Source: Thauera aromatica K172
Lineage (GTDB): Bacteria > Pseudomonadota > Gammaproteobacteria > Burkholderiales > Rhodocyclaceae
Direction: 5' to 3'
DNA: 64,000 nt
Assembly: GCF_003030465.1 (NCBI RefSeq)
Contig: NZ_CP028339.1
Coordinates: forward strand, 3,356,041-3,420,040
Shown: piece by piece, positions 39,725-46,855 of the stretch
Layout: each line of letters starts with the position of its first letter
Numbering within the stretch: position 1 is the stretch's first letter
Translations under genes and position numbers: made by a program
Notes under the pieces: generated by a model
The model's input: only the letters and a program-made list of their open reading frames with translations
Databases searched by the model: none
What the model was told of the DNA's origin: nothing

Positions 39725-40561
39725 TTACAGCGTCTCTTCGGCGAGTACGGCCGGCTCCGCATCCGGCGCCGCGGCCGGATGGCCGAAATGCAGCAGCAGC
39801 CCGGTGAGCACGACACCGCCGATCAGGTTGCCGACCGTGACCGGAAGCTGGTTCCACCACAGCCACTGGCCGACGCCGATGTCGGCGCCGAGGGCGATCG
39901 CGGTCGGCACGACGAACATATTGACCACCGAATGCTCGAGCCCGAGCCCGAAAAACATCGAGATCGGCAGCCAGACCGCGGTGACCTTGCCGATCGACGA
40001 AGTCGAACCGAGGCCGAGCACGGTGCCGAGCGCCACCATCCAGTTGCACAGCACGCCGCTGACGAGCGCGGTGAACCAGCCGCTGGCGCCGGCGTGCTGG
40101 TAGGCCAGCGTCTTCGCTTCGGCGACGGCGACGATCCTCGCTCCGAGCGCACCCGCGCTCTCGGTGAAGCCCTTGGTCAGGGCGAAGGTGAGCAGGCCGC
40201 CGACGAAGACGCTGCCGAGGAAGTTGGCCAGATAGACCCAGCTCCAGTTGCGCACCACCGCGCCGCGCCGGTTGCTGCCGCGCGCCAGGCCGAACGGCAG
40301 GACGGCGAAGTTGCCGGTGGCCAGTTCGAGCCCGAGCAGCACGATGATCGCCGAGCCGGCGGGAAACACCGCCGCCGACACCAGGGTGGCGACCCCTGCC
40401 GGCAGGCCCTCGGACACGGTAAAGGCGAAGGCCGTGGCGTAGGCGAACAGCGCACCGGAAAGAAAGCCTTTGAGCAGCATCCCGGCGATGCTCAGCGCGG
40501 CCTTGTTGCGGCTGGTCGCTGCGATCTCGTCCATCAACCGGGAGGAAGAAAAATGGTCCAT
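39725..40561 (-). CDS. Formate/nitrite transporter (FNT) family channel
   Basis: 278 aa with about six membrane helices. GLELATGNFAVLPFGLARG and NWSWVYLANFLGS, LCNWMVALGTVLGLG and GLEHSVVNMFVVPTAIALGADI are the FNT signature. It moves formate or nitrite (or both) across the inner membrane. A sigma-54 promoter and enhancer sites lie just upstream, so it is likely controlled by the neighbouring activator, which makes nitrite the more probable cargo; this part is inference. Confidence 0.9.
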   Translation of the reverse strand: MDHFSSSRLMDEIAATSRNKAALSIAGMLLKGFLSGALFAYATAFAFTVSEGLPAGVATLVSAAVFPAGSAIIVLLGLELATGNFAVLPFGLARGSNRRGAVVRNWSWVYLANFLGSVFVGGLLTFALTKGFTESAGALGARIVAVAEAKTLAYQHAGASGWFTALVSGVLCNWMVALGTVLGLGSTSSIGKVTAVWLPISMFFGLGLEHSVVNMFVVPTAIALGADIGVGQWLWWNQLPVTVGNLIGGVVLTGLLLHFGHPAAAPDAEPAVLAEETL

Positions 40562-40608
40562 CGCGATTTCTCCGCGAACATTGTTTGAGCGTTACATCAT
40601 CCTGTGAC

Positions 40609-40624
40609 GCAAATTCCGTACCAA
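40609..40624 (-). promoter_or_regulatory. Sigma-54 promoter of the FNT gene
   Basis: On the minus strand: TTGGTACGGAATTTGC, with GG and GC exactly 10 bases apart as required for sigma-54 (-24/-12). The start of the transporter gene lies about 48 bp downstream. Confidence 0.85.
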
Positions 40625-40690
40625 TTTTGCAATTCACTGTTTTTATTGAAAAACAAATTCATCCGCGGTGAACGCGACCGTCCACCCCAG

Positions 40691-40740
40691 CGTTAACGTC
40701 CACCATAAACGTTCAACTTGCGTCCACAATGAACGTCCGC
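40691..40740. promoter_or_regulatory. Activator-binding sites (enhancer), block A
   Basis: Two related sites: GTTAACGTCCACCATAAACG (near 40692) and GCGTCCACAATGAACGTC (near 40720), each a rough dyad of ACGTYC and GAACGT. They lie about 70-130 bp upstream of the sigma-54 box, a usual enhancer distance, and are shared with the start region of the activator gene. The same sites recur in block B. Confidence 0.6.
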
Positions 40741-40775
40741 TACACTGCGCCCACCGTCCCCGAAGGAAAGGCCCG

Positions 40776-42164
<1,389 letters not shown>

Positions 42165-42234: not shown

Positions 42235-42888
42235 TCAGGCCGGCTGCCCGTCGGCGCCGCGCCCGGGAGCGGCGCACGGCGGACGCCGGCCGGCGAACAG
42301 CCCGCCCAGCCAGAAGGCGAACAGCAGCAGCGCGAGCCCGATCATCCACCAGCCGACGCGCGCCTGCTCATCGACCCGGTAGGTGTTGCACACCCGCAGC
42401 GGGGCGGCGAGGTACAGCCAGCCGGTGAACCCGAGCATGCTGATCAGGTTGGTCCAGATGAAGCCCCGGCCGATCAGGCCGAGCCGCTCCCAGGCGAGTG
42501 CGAGCGGCAGGCCGACGAGCAGCGGCAGGCTGGAGAACTTGGCGAGCGCGGCAAGCGGATCGAGCACCGCCGCATCCAGCGCCCGCGGCAGCATCCAGTA
42601 GGTGGACGCAAACACGGCAGCGAGCAGGCAGGCGAGCGGCCCGCCCAGCGCCGCCCGCAGCGCGGCCCGGCGCGGCGCCGGCAGCAGCAGGCCGGCGCAC
42701 ACCCCGAGTGCGGCCAGCAGCGGGATCTGGATCAGCATGTGGCCGACCATCGACGCTTCCAGCCAGGCGCGTGCCGGCGGCAGGGCGAGCGCCAGATAGA
42801 CGGCGGCGAGCGCGACCGCCGCCGGCTTGCGGGGAATGCGCCACGAACTCACAGCCGGATTTACAGCCGGATTTACAGCCGGACTCAC
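42235..42888 (-). CDS. Multi-pass membrane protein of the NOR-like operon
   Basis: 217 aa from GTG 42888, with about six hydrophobic helices (VALAAVYLALALPPARAWLE, MLIQIPLLAALGVCAGLLL, LIGRGFIWTNLISMLGFTGW, WWMIGLALLLFAFWLGGLF). The N-terminus (SPAVNPAVNPAVSS) comes from a 12-bp tandem repeat. No family recognised; CtaG-like oxidase-assembly proteins have a similar style. The gene overlaps the SCO gene by 4 bp (GTGA), so it belongs to the same operon and may help build the enzyme. Confidence 0.65.
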   Translation of the reverse strand: MSPAVNPAVNPAVSSWRIPRKPAAVALAAVYLALALPPARAWLEASMVGHMLIQIPLLAALGVCAGLLLPAPRRAALRAALGGPLACLLAAVFASTYWMLPRALDAAVLDPLAALAKFSSLPLLVGLPLALAWERLGLIGRGFIWTNLISMLGFTGWLYLAAPLRVCNTYRVDEQARVGWWMIGLALLLFAFWLGGLFAGRRPPCAAPGRGADGQPA

Positions 42889-42890
42889 AG
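42850..42890. repeat. 12-bp tandem repeat at the start of the membrane-protein gene
   Basis: ACAGCCGGATTT occurs about three times in a row and continues as ACAGCCGGACTC, followed by another ACAGCCGGG. It encodes VNPAVNPAV and lies across the SCO stop and the next start. Confidence 0.9.
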
Positions 42891-43499
42891 CCGGGCTCCG
42901 AGCGCGGCGACGAACGGCGCCACCGCGTCGAGGTCGCGGATCTCCTCGAGCCGGCCGTCGCGGCCGACGAGGTGCAGCGCGGCGTTGTGCTCGAAACCCC
43001 CGAACGCATCGGGAATCACGACGACGCCGAACGCGGCGAGCAGCGCGCGCAGGCCGTCGGCATCGGCCGGGCGCGCGATCCGCCAGTGCCCGCCGTCCGC
43101 ACCGAAGCGGCGACCGTAGTCGCGCAGGCGGGCGGGCGCGTCGTGCCCCGGATCGAAGCTGATGCTCAGCAGCGCGAACTCACGCCCGAGGGCAGCGGCC
43201 GGCACCTGGTCGCGGATCTGCCTGAAGGCGGTGCCCAGGCTGTAGCAGATCGTCTCGCAGCGAGTGTAGATGAACTCCACCGCGAGCAGCCGCCCGCGGT
43301 AGTCCTGCAGCGTGAACCGCCGGCCGTCCTGGTCTTCGAGGGCGACGGCCGGCAGCGGGCGCGGATTTTCCAGCACGCTCAGGCGGCGCGCCGCCTCGCT
43401 GGTGAAGGCAGTGAAGCCGTCGCTGCCCCACCACAGGGTGGCGGTCCCGAGCGCGGCGACCCCCACCGCGGCAGCGAAATTCCGCGCCCCGGACTTCAT
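42885..43499 (-). CDS. SCO1/SenC-type copper protein
   Basis: 204 aa. An N-terminal membrane anchor (AVGVAALGTATLWWG) and a thioredoxin-like domain. The copper site is FIYTRCETICYSLG (CxxxC), with the later His in IRDFG-like sequence FGGFEHNAALHLV. SCO proteins insert copper into the CuA centre of oxidases. Its place directly after subunit I and near the CuA subunit fits this role. ATGA overlap with subunit I. Confidence 0.9.
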   Translation of the reverse strand: MKSGARNFAAAVGVAALGTATLWWGSDGFTAFTSEAARRLSVLENPRPLPAVALEDQDGRRFTLQDYRGRLLAVEFIYTRCETICYSLGTAFRQIRDQVPAAALGREFALLSISFDPGHDAPARLRDYGRRFGADGGHWRIARPADADGLRALLAAFGVVVIPDAFGGFEHNAALHLVGRDGRLEEIRDLDAVAPFVAALGARL

Positions 43500-45001
43500 A
43501 CCGTGACCACTCCGGCCGGCACGCTCGCCCGCATGTGGCTGCTGCCGGCATGGCCCAGGCGGGCCAGGAAGCGCAGCACGAAGACCAGCGCCGCGGCGAT
43601 GATCAGCGCCGCGAACAACGAGCCGGCGCGGTCGTACGGCACCCATTCAGGCAGATGCTCGGCGTAGCGGCGGGCAACGCTTTCCTTGCCCGAATAAAGG
43701 AAGGTCAGCGTGAACCCGAGCGAACCGACCAGATAGGCCCAGTAGGCGAGGCGATCGAGGGCCGACTCGGCCGCACCCGCACCCGCCCCATCCTTCGCCG
43801 GCTTGGTCAGGTAGTACATGAAGCCGAACAGCATCGACACCATGCCGAGCAGCAGGTAGGTGTGGAAATGCCCCGGCACCCACAGGGTGTTGTGCATCAC
43901 GTAGTTGACCCGGATCGTGCCGTCGATGAAGGCCGGCATCGCCCCCGCCGCCCACCCCAGCATCGACAGGAACAGCAGCCGCGTGCCCATGTCCCAGCGG
44001 ATCCCCGAGCGGTACACGATCATCAGCGCGCCGTAGCCGGTCACCACCAGGATCGGCACCGTGTTCAGGTAGCCGATGATGTGGCCCACCATCAGCATCC
44101 ACTTCGGGAAGCCGAAATCCATCAGCAGGTGGTGCGGGAAGATGAACATCACCATCAGCGTCGACGCCGTCCACGAGGCGAGGAAGACCTTGTTCGACTT
44201 CCACGGCCGGCGCGTGTAGCGCGGCAGGATCTCGTACACCGCGATCACCGCCATGTAGATGGTGGCGTTGATGAAGACGTGACCAAAGAAGTAGATCATG
44301 CCCTTCGCCAGCAGCGGATCGATGGCGAACCCGGGCGCGTAGAGATTGACCAGCATCATCGCCAGGATGCTGGCGCCGACGACCAGGCCGACGACGTTGA
44401 CGATGGTCACCATTGCGCTCGCGACCACGGTCGGCGGCGGGGCGTTGCCGTCGTCGGTGCCGAACAGCTGGGGCCAGCCCAGGGCGCGGGCGAAGCTGCC
44501 GTAGCGGGCGATGAGCGCGCGCGCGATGTCGAGGTGGAAGAGCAGGAAGCCGGTGCCGATGACCAGCATCCCGGCGAGGAACAGCGCCGCCGCCCCGGTG
44601 CTCCACAAGCCCATCGAATGGCTGGGCAGCGGATACAGGAAGGTCCACGCGGCGTGGAAATTGCCCAGGAAGACGCTGCCCAGGACCATCGCCACCCCGA
44701 TCAGGAACAGCACCAGATTGACCAGCAGCAGGCGCGCCGAGAGCGCGACGTAGTGGCCGAGGAAATGCCACATCACCGCCGCACCGCCGATGCCGGCAAT
44801 CCCGACCATGCCGGCGCCATGGACGGTCATGAGCTGGTAGAACCCGTTCGGGCCGAGCTCGATCAGCTCCCCCTGCTCCAGCCGCATCAACAGGCCGAAC
44901 ACCATCAGCAGCAGCAGGACCGCCGCCGCGGTCACCAGGTAGGCGAGCACGCCGGCCTTCGCGCCGTGGTCCGGCGCGGGATGATAGTTGTAGGCTGCCA
45001 T
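43496..45001 (-). CDS. Heme-copper oxidoreductase subunit I, predicted NO reductase (no catalytic Tyr)
   Basis: 501 aa, about 12-13 helices. Likely heme and metal ligands: low-spin heme His61 and His380 (VPGHFHTYLLLG), high-spin heme His378, second metal His241, His290 and His291 (FPHHLLMDFG). In A/B-type oxygen reductases the motif is HPEVY with the cross-linked Tyr; here it is HVFIN, so Asn245 stands at that place. The Tyr used by cbb3 enzymes (six residues before HH) is Val. Loss of both points to NO reduction rather than O2 reduction. The subunit II partner has a CuA site, like sNOR/CuA-NOR types. Membership in a named NOR class is inference. Confidence 0.85.
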   Translation of the reverse strand: MAAYNYHPAPDHGAKAGVLAYLVTAAAVLLLLMVFGLLMRLEQGELIELGPNGFYQLMTVHGAGMVGIAGIGGAAVMWHFLGHYVALSARLLLVNLVLFLIGVAMVLGSVFLGNFHAAWTFLYPLPSHSMGLWSTGAAALFLAGMLVIGTGFLLFHLDIARALIARYGSFARALGWPQLFGTDDGNAPPPTVVASAMVTIVNVVGLVVGASILAMMLVNLYAPGFAIDPLLAKGMIYFFGHVFINATIYMAVIAVYEILPRYTRRPWKSNKVFLASWTASTLMVMFIFPHHLLMDFGFPKWMLMVGHIIGYLNTVPILVVTGYGALMIVYRSGIRWDMGTRLLFLSMLGWAAGAMPAFIDGTIRVNYVMHNTLWVPGHFHTYLLLGMVSMLFGFMYYLTKPAKDGAGAGAAESALDRLAYWAYLVGSLGFTLTFLYSGKESVARRYAEHLPEWVPYDRAGSLFAALIIAAALVFVLRFLARLGHAGSSHMRASVPAGVVTV

Positions 45002-45004
45002 CGC

Positions 45005-45541
45005 TCAGCTCCTTTCTTCGACGGTAAATTCGGCGAACATGTTGTGGTGGCCGAGGCCGCAGTACTCAAGGCACAGCACGCGGTAGGTGCCGGGCCGGGT
45101 AAAGGTGTGGCGCAAGGTGTTGGTGAGCCCGGGCATCGCCTGCACCTGGGCGACGATCTTCAGTTCTTCGTCGTAGATCGCGAAGCCGTGGTTGATGTCG
45201 GCGCTGCGGACGCGGAACTCCACCGGCCGGCCGGCCTCGATGCGCTCCTCGCTCAGTTCCCAACGCCACATGTAGCCAGTGGCGTCGACCACCTGGGCCT
45301 CGCCGCCGGCCTGCGCGGGGCGGACCGCGTCATACGGCAGGTCGCTCAGGGTGAGCACCATCGGCACCCCGAACACCGCCACCAGCCCCCAGAACAAGCG
45401 CGCCCGCAAACGGTAGGCGCGCTGTTGCAGCGGGGCGTAATTCTCTTCGCGCGCGCCCGAATTGAGCAGCACGAAGCCCCAGCCGAGGCCGACCACGGCC
45501 ATCAGCACCAGCGAGATGATCCAGACAATGTCTTGCAGCAT
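45005..45541 (-). CDS. CuA-containing subunit II
   Basis: 178 aa from ATG 45541, with GGGGAG upstream. Two N-terminal helices (IVWIISLVLMAVVGLGWGFVLL, LFWGLVAVFGVPMVLTL) and a cupredoxin domain ending in CLEYCGLGHHNMF, a perfect CxExCGxxHxxM CuA site. It passes electrons from a cytochrome c or similar donor to subunit I, which starts 3 bp downstream. It is shorter than normal cox subunit II. Confidence 0.92.
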   Translation of the reverse strand: MLQDIVWIISLVLMAVVGLGWGFVLLNSGAREENYAPLQQRAYRLRARLFWGLVAVFGVPMVLTLSDLPYDAVRPAQAGGEAQVVDATGYMWRWELSEERIEAGRPVEFRVRSADINHGFAIYDEELKIVAQVQAMPGLTNTLRHTFTRPGTYRVLCLEYCGLGHHNMFAEFTVEERS

Positions 45542-45708: not shown

Positions 45709-46044
45709 TCAGTGCCCGGGCGCATACATCGCCTCGAACACCTTCACCGAATCCGGCGTCGGGACATATTCGTAGGCCTGGTAGCGGCCCTTGACGAGCA
45801 CCGCCTGGCCCGGCGCGACGAAGTACTCGGCGATATCGTTGCCGTCGGGATTGCCTTCGGAAACCACGCCGTGGCCGGTGCGGACGAGCACTTTCAGGGT
45901 GGTCTGCCCCTGGTTGGTCAGTTCCACCAGGCGCTCGGCGCCGAGCGTGACGATTGCCTCGGAAGTCACGATCTTGGCCTGGGCCGGCGCAGCGGCGGCG
46001 ATGGCGAGGACGAGCGCGGGGATGGTCAGGAATTGCTTTTTCAT
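45709..46044 (-). CDS. Small periplasmic protein of the NOR-like operon, unknown
   Basis: 111 aa. A clear signal peptide (MKKQFLTIPALVLAIAAAAPAQA) and a mature domain of about 88 residues with no Cys. AGAGAGG precedes the ATG. It is the first gene behind the sigma-54 promoter of block B, followed after 167 bp by the CuA subunit. Family not recognised. Confidence 0.75.
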   Translation of the reverse strand: MKKQFLTIPALVLAIAAAAPAQAKIVTSEAIVTLGAERLVELTNQGQTTLKVLVRTGHGVVSEGNPDGNDIAEYFVAPGQAVLVKGRYQAYEYVPTPDSVKVFEAMYAPGH

Positions 46045-46107
46045 TGTGAGCCTCTCTAAGTTTGTCGATAAGCAGCGCACCATGCACTGCTTACATCACC
46101 TTATGAG

Positions 46108-46123
46108 GCAAATTCCGTACCAC
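46108..46123 (-). promoter_or_regulatory. Sigma-54 promoter of the NOR-like operon
   Basis: On the minus strand: GTGGTACGGAATTTGC, with GG and GC 10 bases apart. It lies about 64 bp upstream of the small periplasmic protein gene and would drive that gene and probably the subunit II, subunit I, SCO and membrane-protein genes. Confidence 0.85.
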
Positions 46124-46190
46124 TTTTGCAACTTGCTGTTTTTATTGAAAACAAAATTCACCGCGGGGAAGTGCGACCGTTTACTACGGC

Positions 46191-46238
46191 CGTTACGTCC
46201 ATTATGAACGTTCATATTTCGTCCGCAATGAACATCCG
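46191..46238. promoter_or_regulatory. Activator-binding sites (enhancer), block B
   Basis: Two sites: TTACGTCCATTATGAACGTT and TTCGTCCGCAATGAACATCC. They match the two sites of block A in order and spacing. The first is almost a perfect dyad (ACGTCCAT ... ATGAACGT). Confidence 0.6.
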
Positions 46239-46249
46239 TTACGCTGCGC

Positions 46250-46855
46250 CTACCGTCCCGGAAGATCCTTGTCCGCCTGCCAGCGCACCCGCCCCTGGCC
46301 GGCCTCGTTCAGGCGTGCCACCAGCGCTGCGGCCGCATCCTCGGCCAGGCTGAAGCACAGCTCGACTTCGGCCCCGTGCACCACCTCCAGCCCCTGCGCA
46401 CCGGCGGCATCGAGCTCGCGCCGCAGCAGGCCTTCGAGCGCATAGGGAATGACGCAGCACAGCGTCTTGAGGCGCACGATCGGCACTTTTTCGGCCTGCA
46501 GCAGGGCCTGCGCCACCGCGTCGGTATACGCGCGCACGAGGCCGCCGGCCCCCAGCTTGACCCCGCCGAAGTAACGCACCACGGTGGCGAGCACGCCTTC
46601 GAGGTCCTTATGGCGGAGCACGTCGAGCATCGGCCGCCCGGCGGTGCCGCTCGGCTCGCCGTCATCGACCGCCGCCGACTGGCCGCCGGCGAGCAGCGCC
46701 CAGCACACGTGGCGCGCGCCCGGATGCTGCGCCCACAGCGCGGCCACCACCTTCTGCGCCCCGGCGCGGTCGGCCATCGGCTGCACGCAGCCGATGAAGC
46801 GGCTTTTCTTGATGATCAGTTCGCTATGGACGGGGGCGGCGAGCGTGAGCGGCAT
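46250..46855 (-). CDS. yigZ: YigZ/IMPACT family protein
   Basis: 201 aa. IIKKSRFIGCVQPM, ALLAGGQSAAVDDGEPSGTAG and VVRYFGGVKLGAGGLVRAYTDAV are the family marks (UPF0029). The family is related to eukaryotic IMPACT; the function in bacteria is not settled. The gene end lies inside the duplicated block B. Confidence 0.93.
   Translation of the reverse strand: MPLTLAAPVHSELIIKKSRFIGCVQPMADRAGAQKVVAALWAQHPGARHVCWALLAGGQSAAVDDGEPSGTAGRPMLDVLRHKDLEGVLATVVRYFGGVKLGAGGLVRAYTDAVAQALLQAEKVPIVRLKTLCCVIPYALEGLLRRELDAAGAQGLEVVHGAEVELCFSLAEDAAAALVARLNEAGQGRVRWQADKDLPGR

What the first reader, a model, noticed from the sequence alone, without database searches (positions are those of the whole stretch)
43496..45541. 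Heme-copper enzyme with CuA subunit but no catalytic tyrosine: probable unusual NO reductase
Subunit I keeps all six histidine ligands (61, 241, 290, 291, 378, 380) but the residue four after His241, the cross-linked Tyr of A/B-type oxygen reductases, is Asn245 (HVFIN for HPEVY). The Tyr position of cbb3-type enzymes is Val284. Without either Tyr an enzyme would not be expected to reduce O2 well. Subunit II has a perfect CuA site, unlike cNOR (heme c) or qNOR. This fits the sNOR/CuA-type NO reductases proposed from genomes. The flanking SCO gene and the FNT transporter and activator support a nitrogen-oxide role.
Basis: partly seen in the sequence, partly recalled or inferred. Interest (0 to 1): 0.75.

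Follow-up and report, generated by a model that had tools for sequence, protein, structure and literature searches.

The report
sNOR-type nitric oxide reductase gene cluster
The window carries a complete gene set for sNOR, a copper-fed enzyme already proposed to turn nitric oxide into nitrous oxide; its neighbours, a probable nitrite channel and what looks like a dedicated switch, suggest that it works on nitrogen oxides rather than oxygen.

Summary
In detail: subunit I has the six histidine ligands, Asn245 where A/B-type oxidases have the cross-linked Tyr, and Val284 where cbb3 enzymes have theirs; subunit II has a full CuA site. The enzyme is a member of sNOR (norSY-senC-orf1), a named family. 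It lies in a 100/100-supported sNOR clade with Nitrosospira multiformis, apart from O2 reductases, bNOR-like, eNOR-like, cNOR and qNOR rows. The order II-I-SCO-orf1 recurs in nearly all of 80 named loci. The host genome is a denitrifier with cNOR and a second sNOR. NO reduction is inferred, not shown; one published paper argues for O2 reduction. New as far as my searches reach: (i) an FNT channel beside sNOR in 40 of 80 loci, though FNT genes are rare; the window's has the FFHV constriction of nitrite channels; (ii) a sigma-54 activator with a PAS/Cys4 sensor (25 of 80) that comes with a -24/-12 promoter and an array of GTTCA/TGAAC sites; in the window this regulatory region is duplicated, one copy for sNOR, one for FNT; (iii) an NsrR-like gene in 22 other loci, never with the sigma-54 gene. 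All point to NO/nitrite.

The parts
43496..45001 (-). sNOR subunit I (norY): 12 long helices, six His ligands, Asn245 in place of the cross-linked Tyr
   Evidence: PF00115 167 bits; residues; clade; model pLDDT 82, HCO fold
45005..45541 (-). sNOR subunit II (norS): two N-terminal TM helices and a CuA cupredoxin domain (ORF to 45595; Met19 is the likely start)
   Evidence: PF00116 24.0 bits, cut-off 22; CuA ligands 81/81; TM segments
42885..43646 (-). SCO1/SenC copper chaperone (probable CuA loading); ORF overlaps subunit I, so the true start may lie inside
   Evidence: PF02630 50.6 bits; present in 78 of 80 loci
42235..42888 (-). orf1: conserved membrane protein of the norSY-senC-orf1 cluster, probable third subunit or assembly factor
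   Evidence: 79 of 80 loci; model pLDDT 88, no PDB fold match at E<=0.001; weak DUF1404 match in 5 of 25 members, not in the window's
45709..46083 (-). small, probably exported protein (ATG start at 46044) between the sigma-54 promoter and subunit II; function unknown
   Evidence: signal-like N-terminus by eye; found in 4 of 80 loci; no Pfam match
46091..46264 (-). regulatory region, copy 1 (sNOR operon): inverted repeat TGTTCA-N14-TGAAC (about 46209-46235) and -24/-12 element TGGTACGGAATTTGC (46108-46122)
   Evidence: 174-nt repeat, 78% identity to copy 2
40592..40765 (-). regulatory region, copy 2 (FNT promoter, between FNT and the divergent regulator): CGTTCA-N14-TGAAC (about 40710-40736) and TGGTACGGAATTTGC (40609-40623)
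40668..42164 (+). sigma-54-dependent activator: PAS domain with C-x8-C-x3-C-x5-C, AAA+, Fis-type HTH (likely start ATG 40776)
   Evidence: PF00158 231 bits, PF02954 HTH, weak PAS; Cys motif 26 of 26; RpoN present in genome
39725..40561 (-). FNT anion channel, central constriction FFHV as in NirC-alpha (nitrite)
   Evidence: PF01226 210 bits; residues; only FNT gene found in the genome

Best explanation
This is a sNOR (norSY) operon. Electrons enter at CuA in subunit II, pass to a low-spin heme and then to a high-spin heme/CuB centre in subunit I, where two NO are reduced to N2O; Asn245 stands where oxidases carry the Tyr that helps split O2. SCO probably loads CuA and orf1 probably helps assembly or is a third subunit. 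A sigma-54 activator with a Cys4 PAS sensor probably switches on both the sNOR operon and the FNT channel through a duplicated promoter region with TGAAC/GTTCA enhancer sites; the FNT probably moves nitrite. SHOWN by sequence: family membership, ligands, gene order, duplicated promoter region, enhancer-site enrichment. INFERRED: NO as substrate, the electron path (from family knowledge), the signal sensed, direction and substrate of the channel, roles of SCO and orf1.
For: Tree: 31 sNOR rows incl. window one clade, 100/100. Asn at H+4 in 79 of 80 named loci, one unreadable, the residue listed for sNOR (PMC8756737 Table A4) and the one found at the cross-linked Tyr's place in bNOR/CuANOR, an NO reductase purified from B. 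azotoformans (PMC3475470). Gene order II-I-SCO-orf1: II 80, SCO 78, orf1 79 of 80 loci, as in norSY-senC-orf1 and Bacillus qCuANOR type II. Genome of a denitrifier: cd1-type NirS family genes, 2 NarG, 2 NosZ, cNOR with a CxxCH subunit. FNT beside sNOR in 40 of 80 loci against 13 FNT genes in 12 whole genomes, about 0.16 expected per 80 flanks. TGGYAY-N7-GC between regulator and subunit II in 21 of 23 loci against 1 of 55 loci without the regulator. 98 TGAAC/GTTCA half-sites against 8.8 in shuffles. NsrR-like gene in 22 of 80 loci, with the Cys triplet in 21 of 22.
Against: No NO reductase activity of an sNOR is measured here or in the passages read; PMC6967387 (passages) reports induction under O2 limitation in N. 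europaea and argues for a high-affinity oxidase. The own genome already has cNOR and a second sNOR, so the need for this one is unclear. The second sNOR cluster has no sigma-54 site upstream, no enhancer core, no FNT and no regulator of either kind within the 16 kb looked at, so the switch is not essential to sNOR. 40 of 80 loci show no FNT and 33 of 80 show neither regulator type within about 4 kb. The FNT residue at the L79 position is Ser, not the Phe/Tyr of NirC-alpha. The one Rrf2 neighbour shown scores below the NsrR model's cut-off (107 of 182 bits), and all 21 scanned also match RirA. Relatives are not independent draws.
Confidence: 0.82

Rival explanations
1. sNOR is chiefly a high-affinity terminal oxidase that works under low O2 in the presence of NO; NO reduction is a side reaction.
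For: Argued in PMC6967387 from induction under O2 limitation and the affiliation with B-type enzymes (passages); heme-copper fold, nearest solved folds are oxidases, His-ligated CuB and CuA; SCO gene as in oxidases.
Against: No Tyr at either known position; recurrent neighbours are FNT (40 of 80), NsrR-like (22 of 80) and sigma-54 (25 of 80) genes, and HPP transporters in 4; the window's genome already has A-type and C-type (cbb3-like) oxidases.
Confidence: 0.12
2. The enzyme is a bNOR (CuANOR of Bacillus azotoformans type), not sNOR.
For: Same Asn at H+4 and a CuA subunit; bNOR also has SCO and a six-helix membrane gene nearby, and PMC3475470 itself links the type I enzyme with the name sNOR.
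Against: bNOR-like rows L128/L129 group with B-family oxidases (100/99) and away from the sNOR clade; 12 helices in subunit I and two TM helices in subunit II, as in type II of that paper.
Confidence: 0.02
3. The conserved neighbours reflect shared ancestry and operon inertia only; FNT and regulators have no functional tie to sNOR.
For: Relatives share ancestry; half of the loci lack FNT nearby.
Against: FNTs with different pore residues, FFHV and FFHA/LLFNV, sit beside sNOR in different lineages; in the window FNT carries a 78% identical copy of the sNOR promoter region; FNT is near sNOR in Pseudomonadota, Bacillota and Nitrospinota loci.
Confidence: 0.12

Closest known systems
sNOR / norSY-senC-orf1 of ammonia-oxidising bacteria (Nitrosospira, Nitrosomonas, Nitrosococcus)
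   Same: Clade, Asn at H+4, CuA subunit, gene order; 72-74% identity to Nitrosospira/Nitrosovibrio subunit I
   Different: Host is a denitrifier with two sNOR copies; sigma-54 activator and duplicated promoter region; the activator was found near none of the 10 Nitrosomonadaceae loci
qCuANOR type II of Bacillus azotoformans / Geobacillus (PMC3475470, section 15 read)
   Same: Asn for Tyr, 12 helices in I, two TM helices in II, SCO and a 4-5 TM protein
   Different: The Bacillota loci fetched here (taken as this type) are 52-54% identical, read H-x-x-A-N and carry Thr at 284
bNOR (CuANOR, type I)
   Same: Asn for Tyr, CuA, SCO
   Different: bNOR-like rows form a separate clade beside B-family oxidases and keep the PSLMT stretch where the window reads PILVVT
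cNOR (NorBC), present in the same genome
   Same: Likely same reaction
   Different: Glu at H+4 and a CxxCH (heme c) subunit instead of CuA
NorR (sigma-54 NO sensor)
   Same: Sigma-54 activator with tandem enhancer sites upstream of a NO reductase operon (PMC1274295, passages)
   Different: PAS with Cys4 instead of the GAF iron sensor (recalled); 330 bits against NorR cut-off 476; GTTCA/TGAAC sites instead of GT-N7-AC
NirC-alpha FNT channels (PMC5525234, passages)
   Same: FFHV constriction; the YMANV slit reported for nitrifier members is seen in L079 and L088
   Different: Window protein has Ser at the L79 position

Membership tests
sNOR | Subunit I falls in the sNOR clade, apart from O2 reductases and other NORs | tested here: met
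   31 of 31 sNOR rows one clade, 100/100; gNOR and nNOR references not available
sNOR | Asn at H+4 in place of cross-linked Tyr | tested here: met
   N245; Table A4 of PMC8756737
sNOR | CuA cupredoxin subunit II | tested here: met
   Ligands conserved 81/81
sNOR | norSY-senC-orf1 gene order | tested here: met
sNOR | No conserved proton channel (published as 0) | tested here: inconclusive
   The Ser of the B-family K-path helix is Ile317 in the window, but Thr321 is invariant; which residues make the K-path is recalled
sNOR | NO reduction to N2O | not testable with these tools
   Needs enzyme
bNOR / CuANOR | Clade with B. azotoformans-type enzymes | tested here: not met
   L128/L129 (HTLVN, taken as bNOR by motif) lie elsewhere
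B-family O2 reductase | Cross-linked Tyr at H+4 | tested here: not met
   Asn
cNOR/qNOR | Glu at the equivalent position and clade | tested here: not met
eNOR | Gln at H+4 | tested here: not met
   Asn; eNOR-like L124 has HSSQQ
gNOR | Asp at the active-site position (Table A4) | tested here: not met
   Asn at H+4; clade not tested
NorR (for the regulator) | NorR model score and GT-N7-AC sites | tested here: not met
   330 against cut-off 476 bits; different site
NirC-alpha (for the FNT) | Val at A212 position (FFHV) and Phe/Tyr at L79 | tested here: inconclusive
   FFHV met, L79 position is Ser
NsrR (for the Rrf2 neighbours in other loci) | Rrf2 domain with three cluster Cys | tested here: inconclusive
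   Cys triplet 21 of 22; all 21 scanned match NsrR but also RirA; the one shown is below the NsrR cut-off

The most novel reading that the evidence does not exclude
A so far undescribed sigma-54 activator with a PAS/Cys4 sensor (perhaps an Fe-S or metal cluster attacked by NO) is a dedicated NO switch for sNOR. It binds TGAAC/GTTCA arrays and drives both sNOR and a nitrite channel, forming with them a nitrite/NO handling module; other lineages use an NsrR-like repressor instead. This would argue strongly, from genome context, that sNOR is a NO reductase and not an oxidase.
Probability: 0.5. Interest if true: 0.62.

Novelty: new member of a known kind. Interest (0 to 1): 0.42.

Why it matters
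sNOR occurs in nitrifiers, denitrifiers and Bacillus, is annotated as plain cytochrome c oxidase by KEGG (PMC11388526, passages), and its substrate is disputed in print. The conserved NO/nitrite context found here gives an independent argument for NO reduction, i.e. for N2O production, and names a regulator, binding motif and channel that can be tested directly.

Tried and rejected
Rejected: bNOR, eNOR, cNOR/qNOR, B- and A-family oxidase membership of subunit I. Rejected: regulator = NorR. Led nowhere: orf1 fold search (no match at E<=0.001); Pfam on orf1 relatives gave only a weak DUF1404 hit (5 of 25, best E 0.0003); Pfam on the 124-aa gene gave nothing; the pattern TGGCAYN5TTGCW with one mismatch over the window gave no more than chance (4 against 2.5) and did not pick up either promoter; the solved-structure sequence search finds only cytochrome c oxidase subunit 1 chains (ba3 type) at E about 1e-7 to 6e-5. 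The models come without coordinates, so the geometry around residue 245 was not inspected. My first promoter score (24 of 25 against 10 of 54) used ad hoc weights; I rely on the simpler count, whose two arms differ in the length searched (regulator-to-subunit-II gap against 500 nt). The motifs were chosen after seeing the window's promoter, so the window copies are not independent evidence. In the own genome the enhancer pattern with one mismatch gives 51 matches against 8 for its reversed control, but it is nearly its own complement, so many places count twice and most lie outside the window.

Rows dropped: the tree used 61 of 138 rows; L141 gave no HCO row. Alignment A3 holds 34 and A2 24 of the 80 named loci; several were left out after because tblastn coordinates ran over stop codons, others for size. 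L058 was left out of A4 as a near copy of L057. The 12 genomes of the FNT count were picked by hand, L032 and L064 because FNT was known there.
Full report
1. What is there. On the minus strand lie, in order, a 124-aa ORF for a small, probably exported protein (45709-46083), subunit II (45005-45541), subunit I (43496-45001), SCO1/SenC (42885-43646) and a membrane protein, orf1 (42235-42888); a plus-strand sigma-54 activator (40668-42164) and a minus-strand FNT channel (39725-40561) follow. Val284 is at the column where all seven C-family rows carry Tyr. The model of subunit I (35 rows, pLDDT 82) has 12 long helices by my count and a heme-copper oxidase fold; the 50 listed PDB matches are oxidases, bo3 first, ba3 at rank 49.

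2. Family. One scan of GTDB contigs with an alignment of 13 relatives gave 459 confirmed candidates, of which the best 80 were kept. They include Aromatoleum, Sulfuritalea, Nitrosospira, Nitrosovibrio, Nitrosomonas, Neobacillus, Roseomonas, Pseudoalteromonas and a Nitrospinaceae MAG. In a tree of 61 rows (IQ-TREE, LG+C20+F+G4) the 31 sNOR rows are one clade at 100/100; bNOR-like, B-family and eNOR-like rows group together (100/98); A-family, C-family and cNOR/qNOR rows stand apart. The stem of the sNOR clade is long (3.7 changes per column), the tool warns of long branches that meet, and the sister group is not resolved (84/43 with A-family), so I say nothing on its origin. Family labels of reference rows rest on motif and size, not on named proteins: HPLVY for B-family, HTLVN for bNOR, HSSQQ for eNOR-like.

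3. Literature. norSY-senC-orf1 is listed for N. europaea and Nitrosospira multiformis among others (PMC4940428, passages). Table A4 of PMC8756737 gives N for sNOR and for CuANOR, Q for eNOR, D for gNOR, E for cNOR/qNOR (passages). PMC3475470 (section 15 read) describes a Bacillus type II cluster with the same genes, Asn for Tyr, 12 helices and two TM helices in subunit II. PMC11388526 (passages) says that sNOR, gNOR and nNOR are proposed from phylogeny, while cNOR, qNOR, bNOR and eNOR are characterised. PMC6967387 (passages) argues for O2 reduction in N. [quoted passage not shown] A 2024 PNAS paper on these families, recalled, is not held.

4. Gene order across loci. By tblastn, within about 4 kb on either side (less at contig ends), subunit II is found in 80 of 80 loci, SCO in 78, orf1 in 79, FNT in 40, the sigma-54 regulator in 25 and the 124-aa gene in 4. 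A phmmer count over 81 loci (L005 included) gives II 80, SCO 79, orf1 81, regulator 25, FNT 38, 124-aa gene 4.

5. FNT. PF01226 finds 13 genes in 12 whole genomes (about 50 Mb), about 0.16 expected in 80 flanks, against 40 seen: 29 downstream on the same strand, 11 in other layouts. In the window's genome the only FNT gene is this one; in those of L041, L087, L088 and L064 the single FNT also lies by sNOR, and in those of L066 and L032 one of three does. Against: 3 of the 12 genomes have no FNT and in two (L072, L093) it is not adjacent. Of 39 FNT rows (window and 38 loci), 23 have FFHV (NirC-alpha pattern of PMC5525234, passages), 12 have FFHA/LLFNV, 2 FFNA and 2 are incomplete. So different FNT types sit beside sNOR in different lineages. 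The pore signature speaks for nitrite but does not prove it; the window's Ser at the L79 position is odd.

6. Regulators. All-against-all comparison of other ORFs found an Rrf2 family in 22 loci; the representative's best equivalog model is NsrR, below that model's cut-off, and 21 of 22 have a Cys triplet. All 21 scanned match NsrR, and also RirA. In Nitrosococcus oceani a gene named NsrR (Noc2967) lies two locus tags from senC (Noc2969; PMC3772326, passages). No locus has both this gene and the sigma-54 regulator (0 of 80; hypergeometric 5e-5, without correction for kinship); 33 of 80 have neither within the flank.

7. The sigma-54 switch. Window 40592-40765 and 46091-46264 are 78% identical over 174 nt; a gapped alignment scores 202 against at most 29 in 200 mononucleotide shuffles. 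Each copy holds TGGTACGGAATTTGC and, about 110 nt upstream, a GTTCA-N14-TGAAC inverted repeat. TGGYAY-N7-GC occurs between the divergent regulator and subunit II in 21 of 23 loci with that layout (L032 and L053 miss; in L037 and L064 the regulator lies downstream), and within 500 nt upstream of subunit II in 1 of 55 loci without the regulator. In the stretch 130 to 50 nt upstream of the element, 25 of 25 promoters tested (23 loci, L037 and L064 among them and L032 and L053 not, plus the two window copies) have two or more GTTCA/TGAAC half-sites, 98 in all against 8.8 in dinucleotide shuffles; the 55 loci without regulator have 0.16 per 80 nt, in 600 nt upstream of subunit II. In the own genome CGTTCA-N14-TGAAC without mismatch is found at the two window promoters and at two other places, and RpoN is present. 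The regulator's C-x8-C-x3-C-x5-C is kept in 26 of 26. I found no description of this regulator or of the FNT link in the listings of searches or in the passages read; most subscription papers are not held.

8. Own genome. 3.71 Mb, 99.95% complete: A-type and C-type oxidases, cNOR (NorB-like with a CxxCH-bearing frame just upstream), two sNOR, three cytochrome cd1-type (PF02239) genes of which the best is probably nirS, two NarG, two NosZ over the cut-off, no NirK match. The second sNOR cluster (L016/L169; 73-74% identity in subunit I) has the same order; within 16 kb I found no GAACGTTC core, FNT or either regulator, and none of three matches of the loose promoter pattern lies upstream of its subunit II. 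Two unnamed 'same family' genomes share contig lengths with records titled Rhodocyclaceae (G037/L037, G106/L036), so the host is probably of that group.

9. Verdict. An ordinary but well-supported sNOR; the reaction is inferred. What lifts it above routine is the conserved NO/nitrite context and a testable, apparently undescribed regulator.

Noticed in passing
L169 5779-9037 (own genome G000:C1 about 2408.8-2412.0 kb): Second complete sNOR cluster in the same genome, 73% identical subunit I, without a sigma-54 site upstream and without FNT nearby.
   Followed up: partly
window 45709-46083: Small exported-looking protein between promoter and norS, in 4 of 80 related loci, no Pfam family.
   Followed up: partly
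L124 (Roseomonas sp. HF4 genome, contig G454:C30): eNOR-like subunit I (HSSQQ) about 6 kb from an sNOR gene.
   Followed up: no
L130 (Pseudoalteromonas sp. NBT06-2, G453:C442): Divergent C-family-like heme-copper gene about 1.2 kb from sNOR.
   Followed up: no
L028, L029, L033, L059: HPP transmembrane protein family (PF04982 in the one scanned, L059; recalled as nitrite transporters) near sNOR.
   Followed up: no
L061, L063, L065, L073, L075, L078, L084, L095: A recurrent further ORF near sNOR in eight loci; the representative (L084) is SCO1/SenC-like.
   Followed up: no
L052, L053: sNOR clusters with no SCO gene found by tblastn between subunit I and orf1.
   Followed up: no
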